From assembly GCF_016862515.1 (NCBI RefSeq), contig NZ_BONC01000012.1, positions 1 through 64,000 of the forward strand: a stretch of 64,000 nucleotides of DNA, written 5' to 3'. Positions within the stretch are counted from its first letter, which is position 1; every line of letters begins with the position of its first letter. A program made the position numbers and the translations under genes. The notes under the pieces were generated by a model that made no database searches, was not told the DNA's origin, and saw only the letters and a list, made by a program, of their open reading frames with translations. The stretch is from Asanoa iriomotensis (GTDB lineage: Bacteria; Actinomycetota; Actinomycetes; Mycobacteriales; Micromonosporaceae). Of the stretch, positions 2,469-17,804 are shown piece by piece.

Positions 2469-3170
2469 TCAGACCGGGACCGTGACCAGCGGGCTGTTGG
2501 TCCCGTCCGGCTCGCGCACCTGCACCTGCACCGCCTCGATGTCGGTGAGCGGGGCGGCGGTGGCGGACTGCAGCCGGAGCGGGTCGGGTCGCTCCGGGGT
2601 GCCGTAGCCGCCCTCCGGCACCCGCCAGCTCGAGACCACCTCGGCGGTGCCGTCCTTGGTCAGGACCACCAGGCGACAGGTCGCGGGCCCTTGCAGCTTG
2701 CTCAGCTCGAACGAGATGCGGGTGCCGAACGGCCGTGACTCGACGGCGAGCGCGGCGTGCACGCCGGTGGTCGGGTCGGTGGCGCTGCGTGACTCGCCCG
2801 GTGCGGCCGCGACCATGTCCGGCTGGCCCACCCAACGCGCTCCGGCGAAGACGGCGAACCCGCTCAACAGGGCGATCAGCACCACGCCGGCCGCGATGCT
2901 GAGCACGCGGCGGTGCCGGGCGCGGCGCCGGTCGTCACCGACCGCGGTCATCACCCGACCCAGCAGCACGCCCTGCTTCTCGACCTGTTCGGTCACCGCG
3001 AGGTCGTCGCCGTCGACCAGCGCGAGCTCGTCGACCACCGGCAGGAACGACTCCAGCTCGCCGGCACAGACCCAGCAGGTGGCCAGGTGCTGCTCGAACC
3101 GATCGCTGTCGGCCGGGTCGAGGATGCCCAGCGCGTACGACGCGACGTCCCAATGCTCCTCGCGCGTCAT
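2469..3170 (-). CDS. Zinc-containing anti-sigma factor (membrane)
   Basis: 233 residues. The start at 3170 is set by an ATGA overlap with the stop of the upstream sigma factor gene; longer readings in the same frame are shadows of that gene. The N-terminus carries the zinc anti-sigma (ZAS) signature HxxxCxxC as His28, Cys32 and Cys35. A single membrane helix lies at about residues 89-112, and the rest is an extracytoplasmic domain that resembles the C-terminal domain of RskA-type factors. It is expected to hold the adjacent ECF sigma factor at the membrane and release it on a redox or envelope signal. Translational coupling with the sigma gene supports a 1:1 pair. Confidence 0.88.
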   Translation of the reverse strand: MTREEHWDVASYALGILDPADSDRFEQHLATCWVCAGELESFLPVVDELALVDGDDLAVTEQVEKQGVLLGRVMTAVGDDRRRARHRRVLSIAAGVVLIALLSGFAVFAGARWVGQPDMVAAAPGESRSATDPTTGVHAALAVESRPFGTRISFELSKLQGPATCRLVVLTKDGTAEVVSSWRVPEGGYGTPERPDPLRLQSATAAPLTDIEAVQVQVREPDGTNSPLVTVPV

Positions 3171-3832
3171 GATTCGGTCACCTCGCGCGCCTCCAGCGCG
3201 GCGCGCAGCGCGCGCAGCCCGTAGTAGACCCGGGACTTGGCGGTCCCGATCGGCAGCCCCAGCTCCTCCGCCGCCTCCGGGAGGGTGCGGCCCTTGAAGT
3301 AGGTGGCGAGGATGATCTCGCGGTGCGCCGGGCTCAGCGTCTTGAACGCCGCGGTGATCGTCATGCGGCGCAGGACCTGGTCGGTGGCGTCCGCCTCGGC
3401 GAACCGCTCGAGGTCCTCGCCGTAGGCCTCCTGCGGCCGGGCCATCACGCTGCGGTGTTCGTCGATCACGATCCGTCGCGCAACGGTGACGAGCCACGGG
3501 CGCAGCGAGGGCTGTCCCGAGGTGCCGAGCCGGTCCGCGTTGCGCCAGGCCCGCAGCAGCGTCTCCTGCACCACGTCCTCGGCCCGCTGGCGGTCGCCGC
3601 CCGTCAGGCGGAGCACGAACATCAGCAGCGGGCCCGAGTGTTCCTGGTAGAGAAGCCGCATGAGCTGGTCGGAGTTGGTTTCCGCGGCCGGCTCGTCGGG
3701 GACCTGAGGGGAGTCCGAGCGAGGCAGCACCCGGCCATTCTGTCTCGTACCCGGCGAGGCGTCAGTAGCCGCCCCCGAAAACGCGCGCGACGACGACCAC
3801 GTCGGCGGTGGAGCCGCGGCGACCGCGTGCAT
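3167..3832 (-). CDS. ECF-family RNA polymerase sigma factor
   Basis: 221 residues from the ATG at 3832, chosen because GAGGAGG lies 6 nt upstream (3839-3845); a longer in-frame start at 3874 lacks a ribosome binding site. The first 40 residues are unstructured. Region 2 spans roughly residues 45-115 (EDVVQETLLRAWRNADRL) and region 4 about 150-205, with a helix-turn-helix around EAAEELGLPIGTAKSRVYYG. Its stop overlaps the start of the zinc anti-sigma gene (ATGA), so the two form a regulatory pair. The promoter region is shared with the divergent caspase-like gene 138 bp away. The target regulon is not visible, although autoregulation is common in this family. Confidence 0.9.
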   Translation of the reverse strand: MHAVAAAPPPTWSSSRAFSGAATDASPGTRQNGRVLPRSDSPQVPDEPAAETNSDQLMRLLYQEHSGPLLMFVLRLTGGDRQRAEDVVQETLLRAWRNADRLGTSGQPSLRPWLVTVARRIVIDEHRSVMARPQEAYGEDLERFAEADATDQVLRRMTITAAFKTLSPAHREIILATYFKGRTLPEAAEELGLPIGTAKSRVYYGLRALRAALEAREVTES

Positions 3833-3876
3833 GCCAGACCTCCTCACCGGGCCAGCGGCAGCACGCCGCGGCATCA

Positions 3877-3970: not shown

Positions 3971-6859
3971 GTGGACGGGCAGCGTAAGGCGCTGATCGTC
4001 GCCGTCGACGAATACGAGCAGGACGGGCTGCGGCGGCTGCTCTCGGCCTCCGCGGACGCCGAGGCGCTCGGTCGTGTGCTCGGCGACCCCGAGGTCGGTG
4101 GCTTCGACGTGCGGGTGATCCGCAACGAGCCGGCGCACGTGATCAGCTCCCACATCGAGGACCTGTTCTCCGACGCGCGGCGCGACGACGTACTCCTGCT
4201 GCATTTCTCCTGTCACGGTCTCAAGAACGAGTCCGGCGAGCTGTTCTTCGCGGCGACCAACACGCGGCCCAACCGGCTGGGCTCCACCGCGGTGCCGGCC
4301 GGTTTCGTGCAGCGCTGCATGCGCGCCAGCCGCTCGCGCAGCGTCGTGCTGCTGCTGGACTGCTGCTACGGCGGCGCGTTCGGGCAGGGCGTGACCGTGC
4401 GCGCGGCGGGCGACGTCAACGTGTTCGACAGCTTTCCCGGCGGGCGGCTCGGCGGCGGTCGCGGGCGGGCGGTGATCACGGCTTCGAGCGCGATGGAGTA
4501 CGCGTTCGAGGGCGACTACCTGGCCGACGAGCGGGAGCGGGCGCCGTCGGTGTTCACCGCCGCGCTCGTGGAAGGGCTGGGCAGCGGCGAGGCCGACCGC
4601 GACGAGGACGGCTGGGTCTCGCTCAACGAGCTCTACGACTACGTCTTCGACAAGGTCCAGGCGCGCAACCCCCACCAGACGCCGAGCCGCGACGTGGAGA
4701 TGCAGGGCGAGCTGTTTCTCGCCCGCAGCCGCCGGCGCCGCGTCGCACCCCGGCCGATTCCGGCGGACCTGCGGGCCGCGGTCGCCGACGCCAACATGTT
4801 CACGCGCCTCGGCGCGGTCACCGAGCTGCGGTCCCGCCTGGTCGGCGACAATGTGCCGGCCGCTACCGGCGCCTTCGAGGCGCTGCGGGAGATCGCGCAG
4901 ACCGACATCCGGTACGTCGCCGAGGCCGCCGCGGACGCCGTGCGTGAGGTCTCGGTCCGGGCCGAGCCGGCGGAGCTGCGGTTCGGTCCGGATGCCGCCG
5001 CCGAGGTGGTGCGGCTGCTCGGGCCGCCGCTGGCGCGGTCGGTGCGCGCCCGGGCGTCGGACGAGTGGATCACGGTCGCGGCGAGGGCCGACGGGTTCGC
5101 GGTGTCCACCGTGGCCGGCGACGACGTCCGGTTCGGCACGGTGACCTTCATCGGGCCGACCGGCGAGGTCGTGGTGCCGGTCCAGGTCGACGCCCTGGTC
5201 CCCGCGCCGACGCCGGCCGCCGCCCCTCCCCCGGCGCCGGTGCGTGTACCCGCCCCACGGACGTCGGCGGCGGCGCCCGCGCGCGAGCGGCTCCCGTGGT
5301 GGCTCGTCGCCGGGCTGATCCTCGCCGCGGCCGGGCTCGTCATCCTGAACTGGCCGGGCACGGATCACACCCGCATCGCGTGGAACGACCCCGACACCTC
5401 CTGGATCGGGTTCCGCCGGCCGTGGGACCCGTTCATCGTCGGCTCGTTCCTGGTCCTGGCCGGCGCACTCGCCGGCGCGCTGGTCGCCGGCCGGCGCGCC
5501 CTCGGCGTGGTCGCCGGCAGCGGGCTGTTCCTCGCCGTCGACGGCGTGGTCATCCTGCTCGGCGGCGTGGCCGACGTGCACTGGCCCACCTGGTCGGCGA
5601 CCGCGGCGGTGGGCGCGGTGGTCGCGGCGGTGACGGCGGTGGTGGCGCGGCCGGTCCGGCAGCGCCCGCACCGGGTGGACCGCCCCGCCGGGACGCTCGT
5701 GCTCGCCGGCGGTGTGCTGGTCGTCGCGCACGTCTCCGTCGACCTCGACGGCATCACGTGGCTGATGGTCAGCAAGGGTCTCGGCATCCTCGCCGCGCTC
5801 GTGGTGGTCACCCTGAGCTGGCTCGTGCTGTCGGCGGGCGACCCGCGGACGCGGACGTTCCTGGCGGGCGCGGCCGGCACCTACGTCGTGCTCGCCGCGC
5901 TCGACAACGGCGAGAGCTGGTCCGGCGGCCTGCCCGCGGCGTTCGTCATCGGCATGATCGGGTACGCGCTGGTGCTCGTGGGTCTCGGCGTCGGCCTGTC
6001 GCGGCCAGTCGTGCCGCTCCTTACCTTTGACGAGCGGCCGCGGTCGCCGGTGTGGATCACCGTGTCGCTGGCCCTCGGCGGGTTCCTGCTGGTCGCGATC
6101 AACGGCGCCGCCCTTCACGACCCGAAGGCGCAGGCATTCTGGATCGACGCCGCACATTCGCTGGCGCTCGACCGGGCGACCACCGACGGGTCGCTGTACG
6201 TGGCGGTCGTGGCGCTCGCCGCCGCGCTGCTCACGCAGGCCCGGTCGACCGCCGCGGCGTACGCCCTCGGGGTCGTGGCCGGGATCGCGACCCTTTTCCT
6301 CACCGTCGGGGTGGTGCTGCTCGTCAGTGGACTGACCTACGGCAGCACCACGAACACCTGGGCGCTCCTGACCGCGGTCGGGGCGGCGATGGTGGCGGTG
6401 ACGGTGTTCGCGGTGGTCCGTGGGGGGCTCCGGCCGCGGTTGGGCCCGGCCGGGCCGGTCGCCGCCGTGCTGGTGGTGATCGGCACGGCGCCGCTGGTGA
6501 TCGCGCAGTTCGTCCCGGCGGCCGGGGAGTCGTCGGCCACCTACTACGGCAGCCCGTTCCTCGTGGTGCTCGCCCTGGTGCCCGCCGCCCTGGCCGCTCT
6601 CGCGATCACGAGCACGGACCGGGAGTTCCGGCGGCTCGCCGTGGGCGCCGCGCTCGCGTACCCCTTGGCGGTCGCGGTCGCCTGTGTCTATCCGATCGTG
6701 GACGAGACGGCCGACGTCTACTACACCGTCCTGCTCGCCGGCCACCTGGTCCTGGCCGCCGTCGTTGGCTTCGACGCGTGGCGGCGCTCAGGCCAGGACC
6801 GCGCCGCCGGCGACGTCGACGATGACGCCGGTGATCCAGCTCGAAGCGTCCGACGCTAG
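3971..6859 (+). CDS. Caspase-like (C14) protease fused to a multi-pass membrane domain
   Basis: 962 residues from GTG 3971 (GTG 3929 is an alternative). The start suits a leaderless mRNA, though the -10 (CACTGT) is weak. The caspase domain fills about residues 1-250: strand RKALIVAVDEYE, catalytic His82 in HFSCHGLK and catalytic Cys132 in LLLDCCYGG. A perfect EF-hand-like loop DxDxDGxVSxxE (Asp209-Glu220) follows, as in many bacterial caspases, and may bind calcium. Next come a helical segment (about 270-350), a beta-rich module (about 360-430), a Pro/Ala linker and a C-terminal half with roughly a dozen hydrophobic helices. The protease would sit on the cytoplasmic side of the membrane. Substrates are unknown. 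Bacterial caspases often act in conflict or regulated-death systems. The 3' end overlaps the convergent SDR gene by 72 bp. Confidence 0.88.
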   Translation: MDGQRKALIVAVDEYEQDGLRRLLSASADAEALGRVLGDPEVGGFDVRVIRNEPAHVISSHIEDLFSDARRDDVLLLHFSCHGLKNESGELFFAATNTRPNRLGSTAVPAGFVQRCMRASRSRSVVLLLDCCYGGAFGQGVTVRAAGDVNVFDSFPGGRLGGGRGRAVITASSAMEYAFEGDYLADERERAPSVFTAALVEGLGSGEADRDEDGWVSLNELYDYVFDKVQARNPHQTPSRDVEMQGELFLARSRRRRVAPRPIPADLRAAVADANMFTRLGAVTELRSRLVGDNVPAATGAFEALREIAQTDIRYVAEAAADAVREVSVRAEPAELRFGPDAAAEVVRLLGPPLARSVRARASDEWITVAARADGFAVSTVAGDDVRFGTVTFIGPTGEVVVPVQVDALVPAPTPAAAPPPAPVRVPAPRTSAAAPARERLPWWLVAGLILAAAGLVILNWPGTDHTRIAWNDPDTSWIGFRRPWDPFIVGSFLVLAGALAGALVAGRRALGVVAGSGLFLAVDGVVILLGGVADVHWPTWSATAAVGAVVAAVTAVVARPVRQRPHRVDRPAGTLVLAGGVLVVAHVSVDLDGITWLMVSKGLGILAALVVVTLSWLVLSAGDPRTRTFLAGAAGTYVVLAALDNGESWSGGLPAAFVIGMIGYALVLVGLGVGLSRPVVPLLTFDERPRSPVWITVSLALGGFLLVAINGAALHDPKAQAFWIDAAHSLALDRATTDGSLYVAVVALAAALLTQARSTAAAYALGVVAGIATLFLTVGVVLLVSGLTYGSTTNTWALLTAVGAAMVAVTVFAVVRGGLRPRLGPAGPVAAVLVVIGTAPLVIAQFVPAAGESSATYYGSPFLVVLALVPAALAALAITSTDREFRRLAVGAALAYPLAVAVACVYPIVDETADVYYTVLLAGHLVLAAVVGFDAWRRSGQDRAAGDVDDDAGDPARSVRR

Positions 6860-7546
6860 GAACAGCGCGGCCGCGGCGACGTCCTCGGGCGTGCCCAGGC
6901 GGCGCAGCGGATGAGCTTCCGCCAGCTTCTGCTGGACGTCCGCGGGGATCCAGCCCTGGTTGGTCTCGGTCATGATCGTCTCGGGTGCGATGCAATTGGC
7001 GCGCACGCCGAACGGCCCGGCCTGCGCGGCGAGGTCCTGGGTGAAGATCTGAAGACCGGCCTTGGCGGCGGCGTACGCGACGATCGTGCGCTCACTCGGC
7101 TTGCGCCCGGCCGCCGACGAGAGCGTGATGATCGTCCCGGTCCGGCGTTCCTTCATGCCGGGCAGGAAGCGCCGCACGGTGAGGAAGGTGCTGGTCAGGT
7201 TCTGCTCGATATCCGCGCGCCAACTCTCGGGCGTGATGTCCTCGATGGGTGCGGGCCGGCTGGTCGTGTTGCCCGCGCTGGCGACCAGGATGTCGACGCG
7301 CCCGTGCCGCGCCATGATCTGGTCGTGCATCCGGTCGAGATCGGCGGTGTCGGTGACGTCGCCGGTCACGACCAGCACGTCGCCGCCGATCCGTGCCCGC
7401 ACGGCGGCCAGCGCGGCCTCGTCGCGGCCGTGCAGCACGACCTGGGCACCGGCGGCGGCGAACGCGGTCGCGATGGCCGCACCGAGCCCCCGCGAGCTGC
7501 CGGTCACGAGCGCCACCCGCCCTTTGAGGTTCGCTGTCTTGTCCAT
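6788..7546 (-). CDS. SDR family NAD(P)-dependent oxidoreductase
   Basis: 252 residues from ATG 7546. This is a classical short-chain dehydrogenase: cofactor loop TGSSRGLG near residue 15, NAG-type motif (here ASAGN), active-site Ser in TLSSAAG and catalytic YAAAK, with the C-terminal DVAGGAVLA common in this group. The in-frame extension upstream to 7792 has no supporting start. The substrate cannot be told from sequence. The gene interrupts the caspase and membrane-protein genes on the opposite strand, and its last 72 bp are also coding for the caspase-like protein, so its relation to that locus is uncertain. Confidence 0.88.
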   Translation of the reverse strand: MDKTANLKGRVALVTGSSRGLGAAIATAFAAAGAQVVLHGRDEAALAAVRARIGGDVLVVTGDVTDTADLDRMHDQIMARHGRVDILVASAGNTTSRPAPIEDITPESWRADIEQNLTSTFLTVRRFLPGMKERRTGTIITLSSAAGRKPSERTIVAYAAAKAGLQIFTQDLAAQAGPFGVRANCIAPETIMTETNQGWIPADVQQKLAEAHPLRRLGTPEDVAAAALFLASDASSWITGVIVDVAGGAVLA

Positions 7547-7604
7547 GCACCTGATGCTGCCCGCTCGCGGCGGGCGACGGCGTCGGCCGTGGAGCGGCAT
7601 CCGG

Positions 7605-7624
7605 CGTACGCACGCCTGCGTACG
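7605..7624. promoter_or_regulatory. 20-bp inverted repeat in a divergent promoter region
   Basis: CGTACGCA and TGCGTACG are perfect 8-bp arms separated by four bases. The site lies between the divergent SDR (start 7546) and zinc-ribbon gene (start 7715), where an operator for a dimeric repressor would be expected. No obvious cognate regulator is adjacent. Confidence 0.45.
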
Positions 7625-7714
7625 GTGTCGCACCCGAACGACGCATTGACGACGTGCGGCGACGAATCCACGCTCATAGGCGAGGTCTGCGCCGAATCGA
7701 CGAGCGGGGACAGG

Positions 7715-7990
7715 ATGACCGCAGGACGCAGGTTGGCCGGTGACCCCGGCAAACCGGTTCCGGCACCGGGCATCCTGATCGCCTGCCCACAATGCGGCTG
7801 GCGGAGACCGTCAGACCGCTTGCCGGACGCGTGCGATGTCGACCCCAACCACCGGGTGCGCGCGCTGGCCGTGTTCGTCGCCTGCGTCGAGTGCGGCTGG
7901 GAGAACTGGTTCGCCAGCATGCCGGGGTGCTCGAAGTCCACTGCGGACAACAAGCACGACGTACGCGTCCTCGAAGTGGCATACCGGTGA
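7715..7990 (+). CDS. Small zinc-ribbon-like protein
   Basis: 91 residues from ATG 7715, preceded by GGGGA at a suitable distance. Two CxxC knuckles, CPQCGW near residue 27 and CVECGW near residue 60, share the pattern C-x-x-C-G-W and probably bind one zinc ion. No other domain is recognisable. The stop overlaps the GTG of the next gene (GTGA at 7987-7990), so it is translated together with the membrane protein that follows, and the two products probably act together. The function is unknown; a metal-stabilised adaptor or nucleic-acid/protein-binding module is possible. Confidence 0.7.
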   Translation: MTAGRRLAGDPGKPVPAPGILIACPQCGWRRPSDRLPDACDVDPNHRVRALAVFVACVECGWENWFASMPGCSKSTADNKHDVRVLEVAYR

Positions 7991-8931
7991 TCGACAGCCT
8001 TCTGGACCGTGCCGCCTCCGTGCTGGAGCGACGGTTCCTGACCAACGCCTTCCTCCCGGTCCTCCTGCTGCCGCCCGCCGTCCTCACCCCCGCGTTCCTC
8101 CAGGTCGAGGTCGCTGGAGCCCTCCTGGACACGTGGAACCGGCTGACGGTCGGGCCCAAGATCCTGTTCACCGTCGGGTACTTCGCCCTCTCGTGGTTCG
8201 GCGCGACGATCGTGGCCAGCCAGTGGCGCAACATCATCAGACTGTTCGAGGGCTACCCCCTCGCCCGGTTCCGGCACGCCTACCAGGCGGCCGCGGGCTG
8301 GCACCGGGATCAGAGCACTGAGCTCAACGCGCCCGCCAACGACCGTTTCTGGTACACGAAGTACTGGGCCTACCCGACACCGAACGCCGCCCTGCCGACC
8401 CGGCTCGGCAACGTGCTCCGCGCCGCGGAGCTCTACCCGCTCGACCGGTACCACGCGGACGTCATCCTCATCTGGCCCCGCCTGCAGCACGTGCTGCCGC
8501 GCGAACGCATCGACGACGTCGAGGAGGCGCGGTCGACGCTCGAGTTCCTGCTCGTGGTCGCGCTGTGGTTCGCGGCGTTCGCGACGCTGGCGCCCGTGGG
8601 CCTCTACGTCACCGACGGCGACGTCGTCGTCGCGGGCCTGTGCTTCGTCCTGGGTCTCGGCGCCTCCTACGCCGCCTATCTGTCGGCGATCTCCGCTGCG
8701 GCCGAGTACGGCGAGCACATCAGAGCCACCTTCGAGATGTACCGCTTCGACCTGCTGCGGCGGCTGCGGGCGTTGCCCGTGCGCACGCCGGACGAAGAGC
8801 GCGACCAATGGCGCGAGCTGGCCGACTTCTTCGGCCGGAACACACCGTTGGCGTGGCGGTACGCCGACGGCGAGTCGGACGACCCACCGGGATCGACACC
8901 GATAAGGTCGGCCGGTGTCGACGAACGCTGA
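7987..8931 (+). CDS. Membrane protein of unknown function
   Basis: 314 residues from a GTG that overlaps the preceding stop. Hydrophobic segments are visible near residues 20-40 (LPVLLLPPAVLTPAFL), 55-75 (ILFTVGYFALSWFGATIVA), and a pair at about 185-240 (LLVVALWFAAFATLAPVGLY and VVVAGLCFVLGLGASYAAYL). Between them lies a soluble stretch rich in Trp and Tyr. A charged C-terminal tail follows. I recognise no catalytic motif and no named family. It is the middle gene of a three-gene unit: zinc ribbon before it by 4-bp overlap, SAF-domain protein after it by 17-bp overlap. This tight linkage argues for one membrane complex. Confidence 0.75.
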   Translation: MIDSLLDRAASVLERRFLTNAFLPVLLLPPAVLTPAFLQVEVAGALLDTWNRLTVGPKILFTVGYFALSWFGATIVASQWRNIIRLFEGYPLARFRHAYQAAAGWHRDQSTELNAPANDRFWYTKYWAYPTPNAALPTRLGNVLRAAELYPLDRYHADVILIWPRLQHVLPRERIDDVEEARSTLEFLLVVALWFAAFATLAPVGLYVTDGDVVVAGLCFVLGLGASYAAYLSAISAAAEYGEHIRATFEMYRFDLLRRLRALPVRTPDEERDQWRELADFFGRNTPLAWRYADGESDDPPGSTPIRSAGVDER

Positions 8932-9661
8932 CCAGTCGGCCCAGCCCGGAGAGCCGGTCGGCGCGGCCACCGTTCCGCGCCCGCGCGGCGCCGGCATCCC
9001 GGTCGAGGAGTTCCTCCGCCAAGCCCCTACGGCGGCCCAGCCGGACAACGTGTCCACGCCGGTTTCGGGTCTGCTGCCAGGCCCGAGGCCCATGCGGGCC
9101 GGGCCACTCTCCCGCTATCTCCTCGTGGTCGTCGTCGTGGGCCTGGCGGCCGCGGTCGTCTGGGCGGTACGCGGAAAGGACGAGGTGGCCGTCCTGGTCC
9201 CCGCGGCCGACCTGCCCGCCTACCACCTGATCCAGGAGTCCGACGTCGCGCTCGACACCGTCGATGCCAAGGAGGCGGACGGGTTCGCCGTGCTGCCGCT
9301 CGCCGGCCGGTTCACGACGAAGCCGCTGAAACGCGGCGCGCCGATCCGCGGCGAGGAGGTGACCACCGACGTGGTCGCCCGGCTCGGTGCGGACGTGGCC
9401 GTCGTCGGCCTGCGGGCCGATCAGGGAGACGTGCTCGGCGGTGCGCTCGCGGCCGACACCTTCATCCATGTCGTGCTCGTCGAGCGCGGCACGAAGACCG
9501 GCGAGTTCGACGCCGTCACCCTGGCGGTCACGCCGGCCAACGCCGACCGGACGTCGTGGTCCCTGGTGGTGGCCATGAAGGCGGCCGACGCGAGCCGACT
9601 GGAGGCGCCGTTGGCCACGTCGGAGCTGTCCGTCATCCACAGCGTCACACCCGGGCCGTAA
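8915..9661 (+). CDS. SAF-domain membrane protein
   Basis: 248 residues from GTG 8915, with AAGG 7 nt upstream, overlapping the preceding gene by 17 bp. A disordered, Pro-rich cytoplasmic N-terminus (about 60 residues) leads into one membrane helix (YLLVVVVVGLAAAVVWAV, about residues 68-86). The outside part begins VLVPAADLPAYHLIQESDV, which resembles the SAF fold found in CpaB/FlgA pilus and flagellar assembly proteins and in sialic-acid synthase antifreeze domains. No pilus genes are nearby, so an assembly role is not supported here. Its stop is 4 bp from the convergent NTPase gene stop. Confidence 0.65.
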   Translation: MSTNADQSAQPGEPVGAATVPRPRGAGIPVEEFLRQAPTAAQPDNVSTPVSGLLPGPRPMRAGPLSRYLLVVVVVGLAAAVVWAVRGKDEVAVLVPAADLPAYHLIQESDVALDTVDAKEADGFAVLPLAGRFTTKPLKRGAPIRGEEVTTDVVARLGADVAVVGLRADQGDVLGGALAADTFIHVVLVERGTKTGEFDAVTLAVTPANADRTSWSLVVAMKAADASRLEAPLATSELSVIHSVTPGP

Positions 9662-9665
9662 CGCG

Positions 9666-12600
9666 CTAATGGCCCGGCGTGTCCCCCGCCGTGCGGACGA
9701 AGGAGAAGCGGGTCACCTCCGGTGCCCACTCGGCGAAGCGGTGAGCGGGAGCGTTGTCGAACCGCGGGTGTTGGGTCAGCCAGCGCCGGACGGCGGGATC
9801 GGGGTCGGCGAGCGCGGATCCGAGGGTGACGTTCTCGGGTGCGGCGGCGAGCGCGTCGATGAGGGCACGGGCGGTGGTCGGCCGGCCCGTGATCACCGCG
9901 AGCAGGAAGGCGACCACCTCGTGGTCGCCGATGCCGCCACGCGGGTGGTCGAACTCGCCGGGGTCTTTCACCCGGGCCTTGAGCAGCCGGTAGGTGTTGA
10001 CGAACCGTTTCACCGTCCGCGGTGTGGTGCCGATCAGCGGCGCGACCGCCGACATGGCCGCGGCCTCGGCCTCCGTGATCTCCAGGACCTTGGCGGGCAG
10101 GCGCCGGCGCGGTGCGCGCGGATACCGTCTCCCCTGCGGCTCGGGTTCCTTCTGCGGCGTGGCCGTCCGCGCCGGTTCCGGGCCGGGCGTCGCCGGTTGG
10201 GACGGTGTCTCCCGTCGCTGGGTCACGGGTCGGCCGGTCAGGCCGGTGATCATCTGGCGGACGAGGCCCTCGTCGAGCGGTACGAGGCGCACCGGAATCT
10301 GGATGATCTTTTCCAGGTAGTCCGACGGCGTCGCACCGCCTGACCCGCCCAGGAGCTGGTGGTAGCGGATCCGCAGGGACTGGTCGAGCCAGCGCGTGTC
10401 GACGGCGAGCAGCACCACGAACATCTCGAAGTTGAAGAGCAGGTGCACGGCCTCGAGGACCTGCACGACCTTCTCGGCCGCGCACCGGTCGAGGTCGTCG
10501 ATCGCGATCACGACCCGGCGCTTGTCCTTCCGAAGCTCCTCGTCGATCTTGCTGAACAGGTCACGGGTGCGGGTCACCAGGCTGAGCTGGTCCCGATACT
10601 CGGTAACCGTGGACAGTTGTCCCAGCACCGCCGCCGTCTGGTCCGCCTCGGCCTGCCGGCGCAGCCGGTCGGCTTCGGCCGCAAGCCGCACCGACTCGCC
10701 CCGCACCGCCCGCTCCTCCTCGGCCACGTCCTGCAGACGCGCGGCGGCCGCACGGGTCGCTTCCGCCGCCGTCAGCCGGGCAAAGGCGGCCATACCGGCC
10801 CGTCCCGCCTCGGCGAACTCGGCAGCCTGGGCCCGGGCATTGCGGAACTGGACGGTCGCGGCGGCGAAGTAGCCGAGCAGCGCGGTCACCGCACTGATCG
10901 TCGCGACCACGCCGGCTGACTGCCCGGCCGACACGGTCGCCACTGCGGCCGCGGCGAGCAGCAACGCCACGCCCCCGGCGGCCCAGGCCACACGGCGGCG
11001 CCGGGCGAGCCGCGCCGTTGCCTTCTCGACGGCGGCCTTCGCTTTGCCAAGCTCCGTTTCGACTCGCTTGACCTCCTGCGCGGCGTCGGCCGCGCGCCGG
11101 TCCGCGTCCTCGATCTCGGGGATCTTCTTAACGTCGGGCGGTGCGATCTTGCGCAGCACTTGGTCGACCAGACTGGCCCACAGGTTGGTCTCGGCGTAAT
11201 GCCACGCGTTGAACGGGACGAACACGATGTCGCCGACGTAGCCCTCGTCCTTGGTGTCCGCGAGTTGTTCGAGCAGCGCGACGATCCGGTCGAGCACGAA
11301 CGTCTTGCCCGATCCCCACTCGCCGAACAGGCCGACCGCCAGTGGCGGGCGCAGCCCGGCCGACGCGATCAGGCTCGCCAGCGCCGACGCGTCGCGGTCG
11401 GCATCGAGCAGGTCGGTGCCGCGCACGCTGTCGGGTTCGTACCCGGCGACGCCACGGGACACCGGCCGCGACCGGCCCACGGGCCAAACGGAGACTAGAT
11501 CTCCGTTCGCGACCGCAAGCGCGGAGCCAGGCCCGTCCGCGGCGAGAGCGTCGATCGCCCCGCCGGTGAGCAGCCGCGCGATCGGCGGTCCACCCGGTTC
11601 GCTGAGGACGATGTGGCCGGCGTCCGTGGCCGCGGCGATCCCGATCCGCTTGTCGACAGAGACTAGGGCGTGGGGCACACGCTGCCACGGGATCCGCGCG
11701 CTCGCCGTCCCGCGCGCGGTGAGCTCCGTCGACGGCTGGTCCTCGGTGAGGGTGCTGACAACGGCGGCCTCCTTGTCGGTTCCGAGTAGGGCGCGCCGCC
11801 CAGAGCCGTCCACTGCGATCAACGCCGCGCTCGTGGGCACCACCTGGTCGTCCAGGGTCCGGTCCGGTCCCCACCAGCGGACGATGTCGTGCGCACGCGC
11901 CAGCCAGGCGGGTGCACCGGCGGCCAACAACCCGTCGGTCACACCGGTGGCCCGGCCGACGACCGTGCCGGTGCCGACGCGGACGATCTCCGCGACGCCG
12001 TCGTCTAGACGCAGGGCCAGGAGGCCCTCGCGGCCCCAGCCGAGCGAGACGACCCGGCCGTCGACCGTGCCGAGCCGCCGCGTCCGGCCGTCGGCGCCGG
12101 TTTCGTGGACCTCGGTACCCGCGAGCGCGGCGACCCGGTCGCCGCTCGGGGAGAACGCCAGCAACGTCGCGGTTGCCGGCAACCGCGCCGACCACTCGGC
12201 GGGCGCGCCGAGCGCCGAGGCCAGCAGCGGTTGGTCCTCGGCGAGCTCACGGCCGGTCGCGCTGAGCAGGTCCCAAGGCAGTCTCTTCATCGCGCCGAGT
12301 CTGTTTATCTCGCCCGCGCGCAGCAGAGGCCAGCCCACACCGTCGTCCATAGCGAGCCCCAGGATCAGATGCTCCGGTCCAGGCACCGGCAAGCGCCGAG
12401 GCGACCAACGCTCGGCGACGGCCGCGAAATGTTCTTCAAGCGTCCTTTCAGGGCCGGCCTCGGCAAGGCCCTCCACGTCCGTAACGATCGCGGCCGCGAC
12501 GGCGCCGGCCCTGACCCGACCTCCGTCGGGAAACCGCCGCGCCAGTTGGTCGAGGAACCCACCGAACGTCGGCACGCTGGTCGTTTTGTCGGGCGTCTCG

Positions 12601-13076
12601 GTCAGCAGCGGACGCAGCAGTTCGACGAGCGCGACCTCCAGCACGTGGATCCGCAGCGTCGCGGTGGGATGCGCGCTCTCGGCGAAGCCGGCCGTCAACG
12701 CCCGCATCGACTGGTCGGGCGGCAATCCGCCGGCACCCACGCCGAGCAGCGGCATGGCGACCGCGGTGTCCGGATCGGACGCGTACCGGCCGATCTCGCC
12801 CGCCATCGCGCGTACGGTCTCGGCGCTGCTCCTGGATGTGTGCCGATCGGCTCGCACCGCCGTGGCGAACAGCACCGTCCGGCCGTCGGCCGGTGCGGCG
12901 AGGATCTGCCCCACCGTGAGCGGCCCGGCCGGCGGTCGCAGGCCAAGTCGCTGGACCCGCTCGACGTTCTCCGCCGACATGCTCCCGTCGGCGCCGCACG
13001 GCGCGACGAGGATCCGCGCATCGCTGTCGAAGAGGTCGCCCAGGACCACCTCGACCCGCCCGGTCGGTTCTGCCAC
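9666..13076 (-). CDS. Macro domain / beta-propeller-like / KAP-family P-loop NTPase
   Basis: 1136 residues. Order of parts: (1) about 1-160, a macro-like domain (GDLFDSDARILVAPCGADG, later PLLGVGAGGLP), a fold that binds ADP-ribose; (2) about 170-300, a helical piece whose PEHLILGLAMDDGVG resembles Clp N-domains; (3) about 310-560, short beta repeats (LLAFSPSGDRVAAL) like WD40/propeller blades; (4) a KAP NTPase with Walker A GEWGSGKT (Lys591) and Walker B VVIAIDDLD (Asp860-Asp863). Two hydrophobic helices (about 700-755) are inserted between the Walker motifs, which is the KAP hallmark and anchors the ATPase to the membrane inner face. A Pro/basic linker and an alpha-helical lid end the protein. 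KAP ATPases are linked to membrane signalling and anti-phage roles; this fusion's role is unknown. Confidence 0.85.
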   Translation of the reverse strand: MAEPTGRVEVVLGDLFDSDARILVAPCGADGSMSAENVERVQRLGLRPPAGPLTVGQILAAPADGRTVLFATAVRADRHTSRSSAETVRAMAGEIGRYASDPDTAVAMPLLGVGAGGLPPDQSMRALTAGFAESAHPTATLRIHVLEVALVELLRPLLTETPDKTTSVPTFGGFLDQLARRFPDGGRVRAGAVAAAIVTDVEGLAEAGPERTLEEHFAAVAERWSPRRLPVPGPEHLILGLAMDDGVGWPLLRAGEINRLGAMKRLPWDLLSATGRELAEDQPLLASALGAPAEWSARLPATATLLAFSPSGDRVAALAGTEVHETGADGRTRRLGTVDGRVVSLGWGREGLLALRLDDGVAEIVRVGTGTVVGRATGVTDGLLAAGAPAWLARAHDIVRWWGPDRTLDDQVVPTSAALIAVDGSGRRALLGTDKEAAVVSTLTEDQPSTELTARGTASARIPWQRVPHALVSVDKRIGIAAATDAGHIVLSEPGGPPIARLLTGGAIDALAADGPGSALAVANGDLVSVWPVGRSRPVSRGVAGYEPDSVRGTDLLDADRDASALASLIASAGLRPPLAVGLFGEWGSGKTFVLDRIVALLEQLADTKDEGYVGDIVFVPFNAWHYAETNLWASLVDQVLRKIAPPDVKKIPEIEDADRRAADAAQEVKRVETELGKAKAAVEKATARLARRRRVAWAAGGVALLLAAAAVATVSAGQSAGVVATISAVTALLGYFAAATVQFRNARAQAAEFAEAGRAGMAAFARLTAAEATRAAAARLQDVAEEERAVRGESVRLAAEADRLRRQAEADQTAAVLGQLSTVTEYRDQLSLVTRTRDLFSKIDEELRKDKRRVVIAIDDLDRCAAEKVVQVLEAVHLLFNFEMFVVLLAVDTRWLDQSLRIRYHQLLGGSGGATPSDYLEKIIQIPVRLVPLDEGLVRQMITGLTGRPVTQRRETPSQPATPGPEPARTATPQKEPEPQGRRYPRAPRRRLPAKVLEITEAEAAAMSAVAPLIGTTPRTVKRFVNTYRLLKARVKDPGEFDHPRGGIGDHEVVAFLLAVITGRPTTARALIDALAAAPENVTLGSALADPDPAVRRWLTQHPRFDNAPAHRFAEWAPEVTRFSFVRTAGDTPGH

Positions 13077-13229
13077 CTGTGCATCCTTGTCCGCTGCGCG
13101 CCGGCGGGCCGTCAGATGGCTGACAGCGAGGTTTACGGGCTATTCGGTCGGCGTTCGCCCGTCGCCGTGATCCATGTTCGCGGGCGGCGCGCCTACTGGG
13201 GCCGGACCAACCGCTAACAAGGAGCGACC
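13077..13229. other. Divergent intergenic region, no gene seen
   Basis: 153 bp between the KAP NTPase (minus) and the metallophosphoesterase (plus). It ends in AAGGAG, the ribosome binding site of the latter. I see no strong hairpin, operator or small ORF with a credible start. Confidence 0.5.
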
Positions 13230-15065
13230 ATGTCTTTGACACCGAGCCGGCGTAGTCTCCTCGCCGGCGCCGGTCTGGTGGGCGCCGGTGCGGCCGTCGC
13301 CGCATTCGTGCCGGGCACCGCGAGCGCCAGCAACGCAGCCGGCGGGCGCCTCGACACCGAGCACCCGCGGTTCACGCTCGCCGTCATCCCGGACACCCAA
13401 TATCTCTTCGACACCGACCGGGGTGACCCGGCGCCGCTGACCGCGACCCTGCGCTGGATCCAGGAGCGGCAGGGCGACGAGAACATCGTCTTCACCGCGC
13501 ACCTCGGCGACGTCGTCGAGAACGCGCTGGCCAGCGAGCTGGCCGCGGCGGGCGAGGTGTTCAAGGTCTTCGACCGGCGGCGTACGCCCTACAGCGTGCT
13601 CGCCGGCAACCACGACATCAACCCGAACACGACCGACCAGCGCGGGCCAAGCCCGTACCTCGACGTCTTCGGACCGGCCCGCTACCGCCCGCTCGCCACC
13701 TACCGGGGTGCCACGCCGGACGGCTACAACACCTACCACGTGTTCCGGGCCGCGGGTCGCGAGTGGCTGGTGTTCGCCCTTGACTGGCGGCCCTCCGACG
13801 CCACGCTGGCGTGGGCCAGGGGCGTGTTGAAGGCGCACCCGCGTACCCCCGTCATCTTGACCACCCACGATCTCGCGTTCGCCGGCGACGACGGTGTCGC
13901 GCAGATGTCCGGCCACGGCCAGCGGCTCTGGGACGGGCTGATCAAGGACAGCGACCAGATCTTCCTGACGCTCAACGGCCACTACTGGCCGCCGGGGCGC
14001 ACCGTCCTGACGAACGCGGCCGGGCGGGACGTGCACGTGCACATCACCAACTACCAGGACCGCTACTACGGCGGCGGCGCGATGCTGCGGCTCTACCACT
14101 TCGACCTGGCCCGCAACACGATCGACGTCGAGACCGTATCGCCGTGGATCCTCGGGCAGGAGCCGGAGAAGCGCAACGAGTTGGAGCAGCGCGAGATCGA
14201 GCTGACCGACCCGACCAACCGGTTCAGCCTCGCGATCGACTTCGAGTCGCGGTTCGCCGGGTTCGCGCCGGTGGCGCCGCGCCCGCCGCGCGGGCCGGCC
14301 GCCGTGCTGACCAAGGGCACGGTGGCGTACTGGCGGTTCGACCAGGGCCGCGCCGACGGGACCGCGGTGCCCGAGGGCTTCCGGATCCAGGACCTGTCCG
14401 GCAAGGGCAACCACCTCGAGCGGGTCACCATCGCCGGCAGCGCGCCGGAGACGCTGCGCTGGTCGGGCGAGCACGACGGCGACCAGCCCGCGCACGCCAG
14501 CCTCTTCTTCGACGGGGGGAAGAAGCCGGCTCGCGGTGCATATCTGCGTACGGTCGCGGGCGCGCCGATCAACGACGCGACGTTCCCGAACGGGTACACG
14601 ATCGAAGCGTTCGTCAAGCTGCCGCAGGACGTGCGGTCCACCAACCACGCGTGGATGAGCATCCTGAGCCGGTTCGGTGCCGGTGCCGACGCGGGCAAGA
14701 CCGGCGGCGACCCGGCCGAGCCGATCGCCACGCTGAGCATGTCGGACGGGATGGCGTTGCAGTGGGCGATGTTCCCGCTCAACCAGGACGGCATCGCGAC
14801 GAACTGGGGCCACGAGATGCGGGCCGGGGAGTGGTTCCACGTGGCCGTCGTCAACGACGGGCGGGTGACCACGCTCTACGTGGACGGGTCGGAGTTGCTG
14901 CGCAACCCGTCGACGCCGGCCAAGGGGGTGGCCACGTCGCACGAGCCGTGGTTCGTCGGCGCCTACCACTACGACCGGATCGTCGAGCAGGCCTTCTACG
15001 GCTGGATCGGCGACCTGCGCATCGTGGACCGGGCGCTGCCGGTCGACAAGTTCCTGCGCGCCTGA
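13230..15065 (+). CDS. Secreted metallophosphoesterase with C-terminal LamG-like domain
   Basis: 611 residues, preceded by AAGGAG. The N-terminus has a Tat-type signal (SRRSLLAGAGLVGAGAAVAAF, then an Ala-x-Ala site near residue 32), so it is exported folded. The calcineurin-like phosphoesterase domain (about 45-310) shows its metal ligands in order: PDTQ, GDVVEN, GNHD, LTTHD and NGHYW. The C-terminal part (about 345-610) has concanavalin/LamG-type strands (GYTIEAFVKLP, WFHVAVVNDGRVTTLYVDG), a likely carbohydrate or ligand-binding module. The substrate is unknown; a secreted phosphodiesterase or phosphatase for phosphorus scavenging is plausible. A perfect 12-bp hairpin lies 12 bp after the stop. 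Confidence 0.88.
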   Translation: MSLTPSRRSLLAGAGLVGAGAAVAAFVPGTASASNAAGGRLDTEHPRFTLAVIPDTQYLFDTDRGDPAPLTATLRWIQERQGDENIVFTAHLGDVVENALASELAAAGEVFKVFDRRRTPYSVLAGNHDINPNTTDQRGPSPYLDVFGPARYRPLATYRGATPDGYNTYHVFRAAGREWLVFALDWRPSDATLAWARGVLKAHPRTPVILTTHDLAFAGDDGVAQMSGHGQRLWDGLIKDSDQIFLTLNGHYWPPGRTVLTNAAGRDVHVHITNYQDRYYGGGAMLRLYHFDLARNTIDVETVSPWILGQEPEKRNELEQREIELTDPTNRFSLAIDFESRFAGFAPVAPRPPRGPAAVLTKGTVAYWRFDQGRADGTAVPEGFRIQDLSGKGNHLERVTIAGSAPETLRWSGEHDGDQPAHASLFFDGGKKPARGAYLRTVAGAPINDATFPNGYTIEAFVKLPQDVRSTNHAWMSILSRFGAGADAGKTGGDPAEPIATLSMSDGMALQWAMFPLNQDGIATNWGHEMRAGEWFHVAVVNDGRVTTLYVDGSELLRNPSTPAKGVATSHEPWFVGAYHYDRIVEQAFYGWIGDLRIVDRALPVDKFLRA

Positions 15066-15077
15066 GCTTCGGGGCTG

Positions 15078-15108
15078 CCGGGTTCGCGGTGCCGAGCCGC
15101 GAACCCGG
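15078..15108 (+). terminator. Hairpin terminator after the metallophosphoesterase
   Basis: Perfect 12-bp inverted repeat (CCGGGTTCGCGG with its complement) around a 7-nt loop, starting 12 bp after the stop codon. There is no U tract, as is common for actinobacterial intrinsic terminators. Confidence 0.75.
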
Positions 15109-15149
15109 TCCGGGTGGCGGGTTCGCCGATCGCCCGCCAAGATCTCTTC

Positions 15150-15944
15150 ATGCGACGGTTCGACGGACGGGTGGCGTTGGTGACCGGGGCGGCGCACGGC
15201 ATCGGCCGGGCGACCGCCGAGCGGCTCGCGTCCGAGGGCGCGGTGGTGGCGCTCGCTGATCGCGACGCGGACGCGGTCGCGGCGGCCGCCGCGGAGCTCG
15301 GCGGCCACGCGCTGCCGCTGGTGTGCGACGTGACCGAACGCGCCACTGTGGACGCCGCCGTGGCGGCGGTGGTCGCCCGCCACGGCCGGTTGGACGTGTT
15401 GGTGAACAACGTGGGCATCTCCCTGGGCACGCCGTTCGAGGAGATCGACGAGGCCGCGTGGCGCGGTGAGGCCGGGCCGACCCTGCTCGGCGCGGTCACC
15501 TGCGTCCAGGCCGCCCTGCCCCACCTCCTGGCGGCACCGGCCGGCGGCAGCGTGGTGTCGATCAGCTCGATCAACGGGCTGGCGGCCTTCGGCGACCTCG
15601 TCTACTCGGCCGCGAAAGCCGGCCTGCAGAGTCTCAACCAGAATCTGGCCGTGCTCTACTCGCTGCGTGAGCTGGCCCGCCAGGGCTCGCCGTCGCTCGG
15701 GATCCGGTTCAACATCGTCGCGCCCGGCACCATCCGCACGCGGGTGTGGACCGAGGAAGGGCCGGAACGCCTGGCCCTGTTGGACAATCTCGCGGGTCGC
15801 TATCCGGCCGGCCGGGTCGGCGAGCCCGCGGACATCGCGGCCGCGGTCGCGTTCCTGGCCTCCGACGACGCGTCCTTCGTCACCGGCGTCGTGCTCCCGG
15901 TCGACGGCGGTGCGATGACCGGACCGTTCGGCCTCGGCTTCTGA
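15150..15944 (+). CDS. SDR family oxidoreductase
   Basis: 264 residues from ATG 15150; an in-frame GTG at 15114 is an alternative, and neither has a strong ribosome binding site. The cofactor motif TGAAHGIG, the aspartate in LADRDAD (favouring NAD+), NNVG, the catalytic Ser in SISSING, YSAAK and the terminal LPVDGGAMTG motif define a classical SDR. The substrate is unknown. It lies behind the terminator of the metallophosphoesterase and converges on a hypothetical gene 13 bp away, so it is probably transcribed alone. Confidence 0.87.
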   Translation: MRRFDGRVALVTGAAHGIGRATAERLASEGAVVALADRDADAVAAAAAELGGHALPLVCDVTERATVDAAVAAVVARHGRLDVLVNNVGISLGTPFEEIDEAAWRGEAGPTLLGAVTCVQAALPHLLAAPAGGSVVSISSINGLAAFGDLVYSAAKAGLQSLNQNLAVLYSLRELARQGSPSLGIRFNIVAPGTIRTRVWTEEGPERLALLDNLAGRYPAGRVGEPADIAAAVAFLASDDASFVTGVVLPVDGGAMTGPFGLGF

Positions 15945-15957
15945 GGCGGGCTGCCGG

Positions 15958-16320
15958 TCAGGGGCGCAGCCAGCGCAGGGCGGCGTCGGCGGTGTCGGCG
16001 GGCGTGCTGTTGAAGGCGATGGCCGCGCCCGGCGCGTGGACGCGGACCAGGTTGACCACCGTCTCGAAGAACTCGAGATAGGGCTCGTGCTTGCGGATGC
16101 CGCCACCGACCACGACGCAGGCGTAGTCCTGGCTGGTCAAAGCGTCGACGACGGCCCGCTGCGCGGCGTCGTCGACCGCCAGCAGGCACATGTCGGCCGT
16201 GATGCCCAGCTCGGCGAACCGGGCCTCGCCGCGCGCGATGGCGGCCTGCACGGGCGCCGGGTCCCAACCCTCGATCTTGGCCGGGTCCAGCCCGATCACC
16301 AGCACGCGCCCCGTTGGCAT
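15958..16320 (-). CDS. Conserved hypothetical protein, Rossmann-like
   Basis: 120 residues. The sequence alternates strands and helices in a small alpha/beta pattern: RVLVIGLDPAKIEGW at the start, CLLAVDD, then VVVGGGIRKHEPYLEFFE and a C-terminal helix. There are no catalytic motifs I can name, and no signal peptide or membrane helix. It follows the alpha-amylase gene on the same strand with a 10-bp gap and may share its mRNA, but a functional link is not evident. The family is not recognised. Confidence 0.65.
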   Translation of the reverse strand: MPTGRVLVIGLDPAKIEGWDPAPVQAAIARGEARFAELGITADMCLLAVDDAAQRAVVDALTSQDYACVVVGGGIRKHEPYLEFFETVVNLVRVHAPGAAIAFNSTPADTADAALRWLRP

Positions 16321-16330
16321 GGGGCCAACC

Positions 16331-17764
16331 TTATGGCAGCTTCGCCCCGATGTGCAGGGCGACCGCGTCGTGTGCGGCGATGTTGGCGGTGAACCAGCCG
16401 CCGCTGTCGACCGTGATCACCGGGCCCGTGCAGGTGGAGCCGGTGCGTTCGCCGTGGATGACGTCGCAGTAGCGGCCGGCGGGCAGGTTCGAGTCGTACC
16501 AGCGGCCGTTGATCGCGCCGTCCTCGTCGTTGATGGTCAGGAAACCGGCGGACCCGCGCCCGAACGCGATGTGGTTGTTGCCGTTGTCGTACCAGTTGAC
16601 GACCGGCGTGCCTTCGACGGCGTTGCGGAACCCGACCATGTTGGCGATCACCTGCCAGCGGTGCTCGCAGCGCCAGCCACCGGTGAAGCAGGTGGCGTTG
16701 TTGGTGCGCCCGGAGGCGTCCGAGGGCGGCCCCTGGTCCCGCGAGCTGAACTCGTAGCTGGACATCACCGTCGGCGACCCGTAGGGCCAGGCGAGCATGA
16801 ACGCGTTGGCCAGCGCGTAGATCCCGTTGTCGCGGTAGGTCAGCACGCCGGCGACATCGCGCTGGGTGTCGTGGTTGTCGACGAACACGGCCGCGGACCC
16901 GGTCGGCAGGTAGCCCCACGCCTCGCCGAAGTCGCGCAGGTAGGCCAGCCGCTCCGACCGGAACATCCGGGCGAGGTCCTTGCCGTACCGGAACTCGTGC
17001 ACGTCGCCGTTGCCCGTGTACTCCCCCGGCGTGATGGGCTCGCCGGCGCCGAAGATGACCTCCTGCACCATGTACGCGGATCGGGACAGCCGCCCCTTGA
17101 TGTTCGCGATGTCGGCGGCCGGCATGTGCTTGCTCGCGTCCATCCGGAACCCGTCGACCCCGAGGCTCAACAGGTCGTTGAGATAGGCGGCCAGCCGCCC
17201 GCGCACGTAGTCGGCACCGGTGTTGAGGTCGGCCAGGTTGACCAACTCGCAGTTCTGCACTTCATATCGGTCGCCGTAGTTGACGATGTCGTCGTTGCCG
17301 TTGCGCCCACAGTGGTGGAAGTCCTGCGTCTGGTAGATGCCCGGGTAGTTGTAGTGGCTCCACGCCGACCCGGCCCACCCGGGCCCGTTCTTGTCCTCGT
17401 TGGCCATGTGGTTGACCACGGCGTCGACGATCACCTTGACCCCGGCGGCATGACAGGCGTTGACCATGGCGGCGAACTGCGCCCGGGTGCCCTTGCGCGA
17501 CTCGATCCGGTAGCTGACGGGCTGGTAGGCGACCCACCACTCCGGCCCGCGCACATGCTCCTGCGGCGGCGAGACCTGCACGTAGCCGTAGCCACGCGGC
17601 CCGAGGAAGCTCGTGCACTCGTTGCCGACGGACACCCAGTTCCACTCGAACAGGTTGGCGATCACCCGCCGCGGCCCGGCCGGCGCGGCCGCCGCCGGGC
17701 TGGTCGGGACAACGAGCAGGGACGCGGCCAACACGAGCACCGCACCAAGAGCCAGACGCCTCAT
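16331..17764 (-). CDS. Secreted alpha-amylase (GH13)
   Basis: 477 residues with a Sec signal peptide (about residues 1-27, MRRLALGAVLVLAASLLVVP then an AAAA cleavage zone). The mature enzyme endo-hydrolyses alpha-1,4 bonds in starch outside the cell. GH13 conserved regions are all present: VDAVVNH, GFRMDASKH with the nucleophile Asp, QEVIFGAGE with the acid/base Glu, and FVDNHD with the transition-state Asp. The opening VIANLFEWNW and the chloride-site pattern place it with the Streptomyces/animal-type amylases. The length fits catalytic domain plus C-terminal beta domain, with no added starch-binding module. It is the third of four same-strand genes. Confidence 0.95.
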   Translation of the reverse strand: MRRLALGAVLVLAASLLVVPTSPAAAAPAGPRRVIANLFEWNWVSVGNECTSFLGPRGYGYVQVSPPQEHVRGPEWWVAYQPVSYRIESRKGTRAQFAAMVNACHAAGVKVIVDAVVNHMANEDKNGPGWAGSAWSHYNYPGIYQTQDFHHCGRNGNDDIVNYGDRYEVQNCELVNLADLNTGADYVRGRLAAYLNDLLSLGVDGFRMDASKHMPAADIANIKGRLSRSAYMVQEVIFGAGEPITPGEYTGNGDVHEFRYGKDLARMFRSERLAYLRDFGEAWGYLPTGSAAVFVDNHDTQRDVAGVLTYRDNGIYALANAFMLAWPYGSPTVMSSYEFSSRDQGPPSDASGRTNNATCFTGGWRCEHRWQVIANMVGFRNAVEGTPVVNWYDNGNNHIAFGRGSAGFLTINDEDGAINGRWYDSNLPAGRYCDVIHGERTGSTCTGPVITVDSGGWFTANIAAHDAVALHIGAKLP

Positions 17765-17804
17765 CGCGCCACCCCCAACACATCGACGAGCGCCAGTGTA
17801 CGCG

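What the first reader, a model, noticed from the sequence alone, without database searches (positions are those of the whole stretch)
3971..13076. Caspase-like protease and macro-KAP NTPase within 9 kb: a possible undescribed conflict or signalling locus
Within 9 kb there are a membrane-tethered caspase-like protease, a zinc-ribbon / membrane / SAF-domain trio, and a KAP NTPase with macro and propeller-like domains. Several products are membrane anchored. Bacterial caspases and KAP or STAND-type NTPases recur in described biological conflict systems (established for the families), but this combination is not one I can name. The SDR inside the locus and the mixed strands argue against one simple operon, so a joint function is inference.
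Basis: partly seen in the sequence, partly recalled or inferred. Interest (0 to 1): 0.65.

Follow-up and report, generated by a model that had tools for sequence, protein, structure and literature searches.

The report
Neighbouring but separate conflict-type protein modules
Three immunity-like protein modules sit side by side in this actinobacterium but were not found together in relatives; one of them, an unnamed set of membrane proteins, is elsewhere tied to caspase-like proteases and may be a new part of bacterial cell-death or defence systems.

Summary
The genes are real: an EACC1-type caspase with about 15 hydrophobic segments (3971-6859 +), an opposing SDR, an overlapping trio (zinc-ribbon-like, membrane and SAF proteins; 7715-9661 +) and a convergent macro-propeller-KAP NTPase (9666-13076 -).

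One joint locus is not supported. The three nearest trios lack caspase and KAP within about 9 kb. Genome G005 (same genus) has the caspase but no match to the membrane protein or the macro-propeller region. The one other full-length macro-propeller-KAP found lacks both neighbours.

The trio is the better lead. Its membrane protein belongs to a family without a convincing Pfam or NCBIfam match, found in 54 of 250 genomes of the bacterial family (window's included). A CHAT (caspase-clan) protease lies within 5 kb of 16 of 47 members (0.4 expected), and in three loci membrane and SAF parts share one open frame just downstream of a CHAT gene. I read the trio as an undescribed membrane unit of CHAT/caspase conflict systems. 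Pairing with the neighbouring caspase, which has no EACC1 gene beside it, is possible but unproven. Caspase and KAP are coupled in two relatives, with another KAP type and another arrangement.

The parts
3971..6859 (+). EACC1-type caspase (motifs HFSCHG and LLDCCYGG) with a linker and 15 hydrophobic segments; open frame from 3929
   Evidence: of the 13 relatives fetched, L175 matches the C-terminal part best (41% over 727 columns) and has an EACC1 gene just 5'
6788..7546 (-). SDR oxidoreductase between caspase and trio on the other strand; an 83% identical SDR stands in different surroundings in G004
7715..7990 (+). small Cys-rich (zinc-ribbon-like) protein; its stop overlaps the start of the membrane protein
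7987..8931 (+). membrane protein of an unnamed family: two hydrophobic segments, a stretch with the family consensus LPTRLGN...YGLD...WPRLY, two more segments, tail; searches used 7963-8931
8915..9661 (+). SAF-domain protein: N-terminal part, one hydrophobic segment, then the SAF domain (outside the membrane by inference)
   Evidence: in one open frame with the membrane part in L098, L099, L100
9666..13076 (-). macro - (Clp_N-like, weak) - propeller-like - KAP P-loop NTPase with hydrophobic segments inside the KAP part
2469..3874 (-). anti-sigma-like protein and ECF sigma factor diverging from the caspase; context only
13230..15065 (+). metallophosphoesterase with a laminin-G-like domain and a TAT-like N-terminus (below cut-off); genus gene at the right edge of the variable stretch

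Best explanation
The 9 kb holds three modules that came together in a variable stretch, not one conserved system. (1) A caspase of the EACC1 (System 4) type on a membrane domain, here without an EACC1 gene beside it. (2) A three-gene unit, zinc-ribbon-like protein / four-segment membrane protein / SAF protein, with overlapping gene ends and therefore probably one transcript. I propose that it is the membrane-sensing unit of caspase-clan protease systems: the SAF domain outside the membrane senses an envelope or invader cue, the membrane protein carries the change across, and the zinc-ribbon-like protein docks or licenses a CHAT or caspase protease, which then cuts targets and stops the infected cell. 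(3) A macro-propeller-KAP NTPase that would act as a separate sensor. Shown: the gene anatomy, the separate occurrence of the modules in the genomes examined, the membrane-SAF open frames, and the statistical link of the membrane family to CHAT genes. Inferred: topology, signalling, proteolysis, and any role in defence.
For: Separate modules: L089-L091 carry membrane and SAF genes side by side (zinc-ribbon gene hit in 2 of 3, in L090 weakly) without caspase or KAP in 20 kb. G005 has the caspase (81.5% identical over the protease domain) and no match to the membrane protein or to the macro-propeller region in its genome. L001, apparently the same record as G145:C13 (equal contig length), has the macro-propeller-KAP protein alone. 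In G001 and G003 the stretches matching window 13.1-15.1 and 16.3-17.8 kb stand side by side, with no other match to the window in the 40 kb compared at the thresholds used. Trio as protease partner: 16 of 47 membrane-family hits in 30 genomes have a PF12770 match within 5 kb, 0.39 expected from 209 CHAT matches, Poisson about 1e-20. My CHAT profile hits 20 of 56 fetched membrane-family loci, in two of them on the opposite strand. Membrane part and SAF lie in one open frame in L098-L100, each just downstream of a CHAT gene, with the zinc-ribbon-like frame between, and followed by a TPR protein; L098 also has a Trypco2 gene and a trypsin-CHAT-AAA-TPR protein. SAF at 8 of 56 loci: 3 as a separate 3' gene, 2 convergent, 3 in the same frame. 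A Cys/His-rich reading frame ends at the membrane gene's start in 36 of 57 loci, against 35 of 631 called proteins of the same loci.
Against: The three closest trios have no CHAT or caspase hit in their 20 kb, so there the protease partner may be absent or encoded elsewhere. 36 of 56 membrane-family loci show no CHAT hit in the stretch fetched. The zinc-ribbon assignment rests on Cys/His spacing and sub-threshold Pfam matches; a first, stricter pattern was met in only 15 of 57 loci, and the rule was chosen after seeing the sequences and takes the best of several frames, whereas its control takes one. Folding of the membrane protein failed (mean pLDDT 42). No functional data exist. The CHAT link is counted on related genomes, so 16 cases are not 16 independent gains. 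Caspase and KAP are coupled in L038 and L181, which would fit some joint role.
Confidence: 0.6

Rival explanations
1. The trio is the working membrane partner of the neighbouring caspase in this species: zinc-ribbon-like, membrane and SAF proteins replace the missing EACC1 protein and activate the caspase. (Odds here are rough and the readings are not fully exclusive.)
For: EACC1 lies just 5' of the caspase at 8 of 13 caspase loci but was not found in the 64 kb window (best window score 8 bits, E 5); trio 0.9 kb from the caspase gene on the same strand; the membrane family is linked to CHAT proteases; L101 of the same genus has CHAT, membrane-family gene and an EACC1-type caspase within 5 kb.
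Against: G005 has the caspase without EACC1 in the 16 kb held and without a match to the membrane protein in its genome, so absence of EACC1 does not go with presence of the trio; an SDR on the opposite strand separates the two genes; a caspase hit at only 1 of 56 other membrane-family loci.
Confidence: 0.2
2. Caspase and KAP NTPase form one conflict system with the trio as bystander; the KAP protein senses and the caspase executes.
For: Caspase and KAP domain in one 996-aa open frame in Micromonospora sp. CP22 (L038); in L181 (G108) the caspase frame ends within a KAP domain that continues in an overlapping frame on the same strand.
Against: Here the two genes are on opposite strands with the trio between them; no macro or propeller hit in L038 or L181; the closest relative of the window's KAP protein stands without a caspase; my caspase profile hits 1 of 53 KAP loci.
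Confidence: 0.08
3. The trio has nothing to do with proteases: it is an envelope assembly or transport unit (the SAF protein resembles CpaB and FlgA proteins weakly) that happens to sit near conflict genes.
For: SAF protein matches CpaB and FlgA models below cut-off; no CHAT or caspase hit at the three closest trios, whose other neighbours were only looked at by eye as unannotated frames.
Against: CHAT within 5 kb of 16 of 47 family members against 0.39 expected; membrane-SAF open frames just downstream of CHAT genes. Pilus or flagellar genes were not searched for.
Confidence: 0.2

Closest known systems
EACC1-caspase two-gene system (System 4 of Kaur et al. 2020, eLife, PMC7159879; section 33 read in full, other passages by word search)
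   Same: Caspase passes the curated EACC1-associated model; caspase domain N-terminal, variable C-terminus, here with many hydrophobic segments
   Different: No EACC1 gene found in the window or in the 16 kb held of G005; a trio stands near instead. The words SAF and CHAT do not occur in that paper's main text
CHAT proteases with TPR partners, including Csx29 of Craspase (PMC9729208: listing and start of abstract seen)
   Same: CHAT genes beside the membrane family; one (L092) matches the Csx29 model below cut-off (63 of 300 bits)
   Different: No CRISPR link was looked for; partners are a zinc-ribbon-like, a membrane and a SAF protein; the window has a caspase instead of CHAT
Qat system ATPase QatA and other KAP defence ATPases (PifA)
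   Same: Same KAP ATPase domain (NCBIfam and PADLOC matches)
   Different: 86.9 of 600 bits for QatA; macro and propeller-like parts in front; Qat partner genes were not searched for
CpaB/FlgA SAF proteins
   Same: SAF domain after one hydrophobic segment
   Different: Scores far below the cut-offs (23.7 of 71; 20.9 of 54.65); stands beside, or in one frame with, a membrane protein of another family

Membership tests
EACC1-caspase two-gene system | caspase domain of the EACC1-associated type at the N-terminus | tested here: met
   NF047832 158.8 bits, cut-off 140
EACC1-caspase two-gene system | EACC1 gene directly 5' of the caspase gene | tested here: not met
   profile built from relatives finds none in six frames of the window; the neighbour 5' is an ECF sigma gene on the other strand
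EACC1-caspase two-gene system | autoproteolysis releasing the effector part | not testable with these tools
   a proposal in PMC7159879 section 33; no experiment here
CHAT protease conflict system | CHAT domain protease at the locus | tested here: not met
   no CHAT profile hit in the window; the genome's three PF12770 matches are on other contigs
Qat anti-phage system | QatA over the curated cut-off | tested here: not met
   86.9 bits against 600
CpaB pilus assembly protein | TIGR03177 over cut-off | tested here: not met
   23.7 bits against 71
zinc-ribbon / membrane / SAF unit (described here) | zinc-ribbon-like, membrane and SAF genes contiguous on one strand | tested here: met
   window, L089, L090 (its zinc-ribbon hit is weak, E 3e-4); in L091 membrane and SAF are hit and a Cys-rich frame is seen by eye

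The most novel reading that the evidence does not exclude
The zinc-ribbon / membrane / SAF unit is the constant membrane receptor of a so far unnamed class of actinobacterial protease-driven cell-death systems. It works with CHAT proteases in many loci, with MoxR-vWA modules in some, and with an EACC1-less caspase in this genome, so that proteases of two caspase-clan branches are interchangeable outputs of one receptor.
Probability: 0.2. Interest if true: 0.65.

Novelty: new variant of a known kind. Interest (0 to 1): 0.42.

Why it matters
Bacterial caspase and CHAT systems are numerous, but what switches them on is mostly unknown (recalled). A membrane protein and a probably extracytoplasmic SAF domain, encoded beside such proteases and sometimes in one open frame, give a concrete candidate for the sensing step and a family that could be tested. 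The locus itself, as a joint system, is not supported and should not be filed as one.

Tried and rejected
One joint locus: rejected because the modules occur apart in what was examined. Plasmid origin of the KAP protein: 32 plasmid records match, none over 80% of the query; the 15 listed match only the KAP part. EACC1 hidden near the caspase: none found. Folding the membrane protein from one sequence: mean pLDDT 42, not used. Macro-propeller folding with two sequences: only the macro part and some strands usable. Solved-structure search with the membrane family profile: one chance-level hit. Naming the membrane family: of 46 members, two single weak Pfam matches (E 0.003 and 0.01) and one weak NCBIfam match (E 0.009), each in one member only. 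Phylum-wide search with the membrane profile: 6 of 296 genomes including the window's. Class-wide search with the macro-propeller profile: 3 of 296 including the window's, the other two weak and partial. These whole-genome searches score few candidates per genome (7, 4 and), so distant members can be missed.

Literature: (EACC1, caspase, effector-associated) gave two papers, PMC7159879 and PMC8195603, both opened. Searches (CHAT domain with SAF domain; caspase, CHAT, antiphage, actinobacteria, transmembrane; KAP NTPase with macro domain) gave no paper. One search gave 7 and one search gave 9, seen as listings with abstract starts; of the latter three were opened for sections or word passages: PMC7159879, PMC8195603 and PMC11237479. 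I recognised none as describing the trio. Subscription papers are mostly not in that library, so this is no proof that it is undescribed.

Limits of the counts: of 75 membrane-family rows (one is the window), 55 were fetched and the 19 weakest or later rows were left out; G028 came; together 56 loci of 7-20 kb. Alignment A1 holds 46 of 57 sequences. The 30 genomes are 30 of the 54 with a membrane-family match, chosen from the top of the list after I had seen CHAT-like neighbours. The 53 KAP loci come from pattern scans and differ in length. Gene calls in relatives are my own by codon composition.

Full report
What is there. Six genes lie between 3971 and 13076: an EACC1-type caspase with 15 hydrophobic segments (+), an SDR (-) whose end overlaps the caspase end, three overlapping genes for a zinc-ribbon-like protein, a four-segment membrane protein and a SAF protein (+), and a convergent macro-propeller-KAP NTPase (-). 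The caspase keeps HFSCHG and LLDCCYGG. The macro fold is backed by structure comparison of a model of moderate local confidence; the propeller only by weak matches. An ECF sigma / anti-sigma pair diverges from the caspase.

Do the pieces travel together? Not in what I examined. The window's membrane protein has three close relatives (54-57% identity) among 250 genomes of the bacterial family. In those three, membrane and SAF genes are neighbours, the zinc-ribbon gene is hit in two (once weakly) and a Cys-rich frame is visible in the third, and neither caspase nor KAP is hit in the 20 kb. Thirteen caspase loci, one of them a paralogue of the window's own genome and several on short contigs, show no hit of the trio, macro or propeller queries. 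One of them, in genome G005 of the same genus, is 81.5% identical over the protease domain, and that genome has no match to the membrane protein or the macro-propeller region. A full-length match to the macro-propeller region was found in one other genome of 250, eight further genomes giving partial matches. It seems to be Actinoplanes sp. NBRC 103695 (equal contig length), and has no caspase or trio hit within about 10 kb. Gene order within the genus agrees: in G001 and G003 the stretches matching 13.1-15.1 and 16.3-17.8 kb of the window stand directly side by side with no other match to the window in 40 kb; in G005 a caspase lies between them; in G004 the first of them is in pieces and the SDR of 6788-7546 is found in other surroundings. 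The block is a variable stretch next to conserved genes.

What is the caspase? Of the 13 relatives fetched, the one in G095 matches the C-terminal part best and is preceded by an EACC1 gene; EACC1 lies just 5' at 8 of 13 loci. Kaur et al. describe this as a two-gene membrane-associated conflict system in which EACC1 may sense and the caspase act by autoproteolysis (PMC7159879, section 33). No EACC1 was found in the window or in the 16 kb held of G005. The window's genome has a standard EACC1-caspase pair elsewhere (L189).

What is the trio? The membrane family has no convincing Pfam or NCBIfam match in 46 members. Its consensus holds RYP, LPTRLGN.LRA.E, YGLD and WPRLY. It was found in 54 of 250 genomes of the family but 6 of 296 across the phylum, the window's genome included in both. 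A Cys/His-rich frame ends at its start in 36 of 57 loci, against 35 of 631 control proteins; a stricter first pattern was met in 15 of 57. CHAT protease genes lie within 5 kb of 16 of 47 members, 0.39 expected. In L098, L099 and L100 one open frame carries both membrane and SAF parts, downstream of a CHAT gene and upstream of a TPR protein; L098 also has a Trypco2 gene and a trypsin-CHAT-AAA-TPR protein. Six of 56 loci share a vWA/chelatase-like gene 3', five of them also a MoxR-type ATPase, by clustering; of these only L106 was scanned, and there the row continues with a CHAT match below cut-off and a TIR-like FxsC match below cut-off. Such neighbours are the usual company of conflict systems (PMC7159879 for MoxR-vWA, Trypco and caspase parts, passages). 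The most economical reading is that the trio is the membrane and envelope-facing part of such systems.

Is the trio the partner of this caspase? It may be: no EACC1 is beside the caspase, and in L101, from the same genus, CHAT, the membrane gene and an EACC1-type caspase are neighbours. But G005 lacks EACC1 beside its caspase and has no trio membrane protein, an SDR lies between, and only 1 of 56 other membrane-family loci has a caspase hit. I give this 0.2.

Caspase and KAP. In L038 (Micromonospora sp. CP22) one 996-aa open frame holds a caspase and a KAP domain. In L181 the caspase frame also holds the first part of a KAP domain, whose remainder lies in an overlapping frame on the same strand; whether this is a broken gene, a programmed shift or a sequence error I cannot tell.

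Verdict. Observation confirmed; joint locus not supported; a new family-level lead (zinc-ribbon / membrane / SAF unit with CHAT proteases) came out of the check.

Noticed in passing
L038:9083-12073: One 996-aa open frame with an N-terminal caspase and a C-terminal KAP NTPase (Micromonospora sp. CP22).
   Followed up: partly
L181:7281-10339: Caspase frame that also holds the start of a KAP domain, the rest of which lies in an overlapping frame on the same strand.
   Followed up: partly
L106, L112, L114, L118, L129, L131: Membrane-family gene with a vWA/chelatase-like gene 3' (in all but L131 also a clustered MoxR-type ATPase); in L106 followed by weak CHAT and FxsC TIR-like matches.
   Followed up: partly
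L098:2255-15047: Trypco2, trypsin-CHAT-AAA-TPR protein, CHAT, membrane-SAF in one frame and a TPR protein in a row.
   Followed up: partly
window 2469-3874: ECF sigma and anti-sigma genes diverge from the caspase; ECF sigma genes are reported in EACC2-caspase neighbourhoods (PMC8195603, passage).
   Followed up: no
L189:9037-10663: A standard EACC1-caspase pair elsewhere in the window's own genome, which has six caspase matches in all.
   Followed up: no
window 13115-17799: In G001 and G003 the stretches at 13.1-15.1 and 16.3-17.8 kb are adjacent; what lies between and beside them differs among species of the genus, so this is an insertion-prone place.
   Followed up: partly
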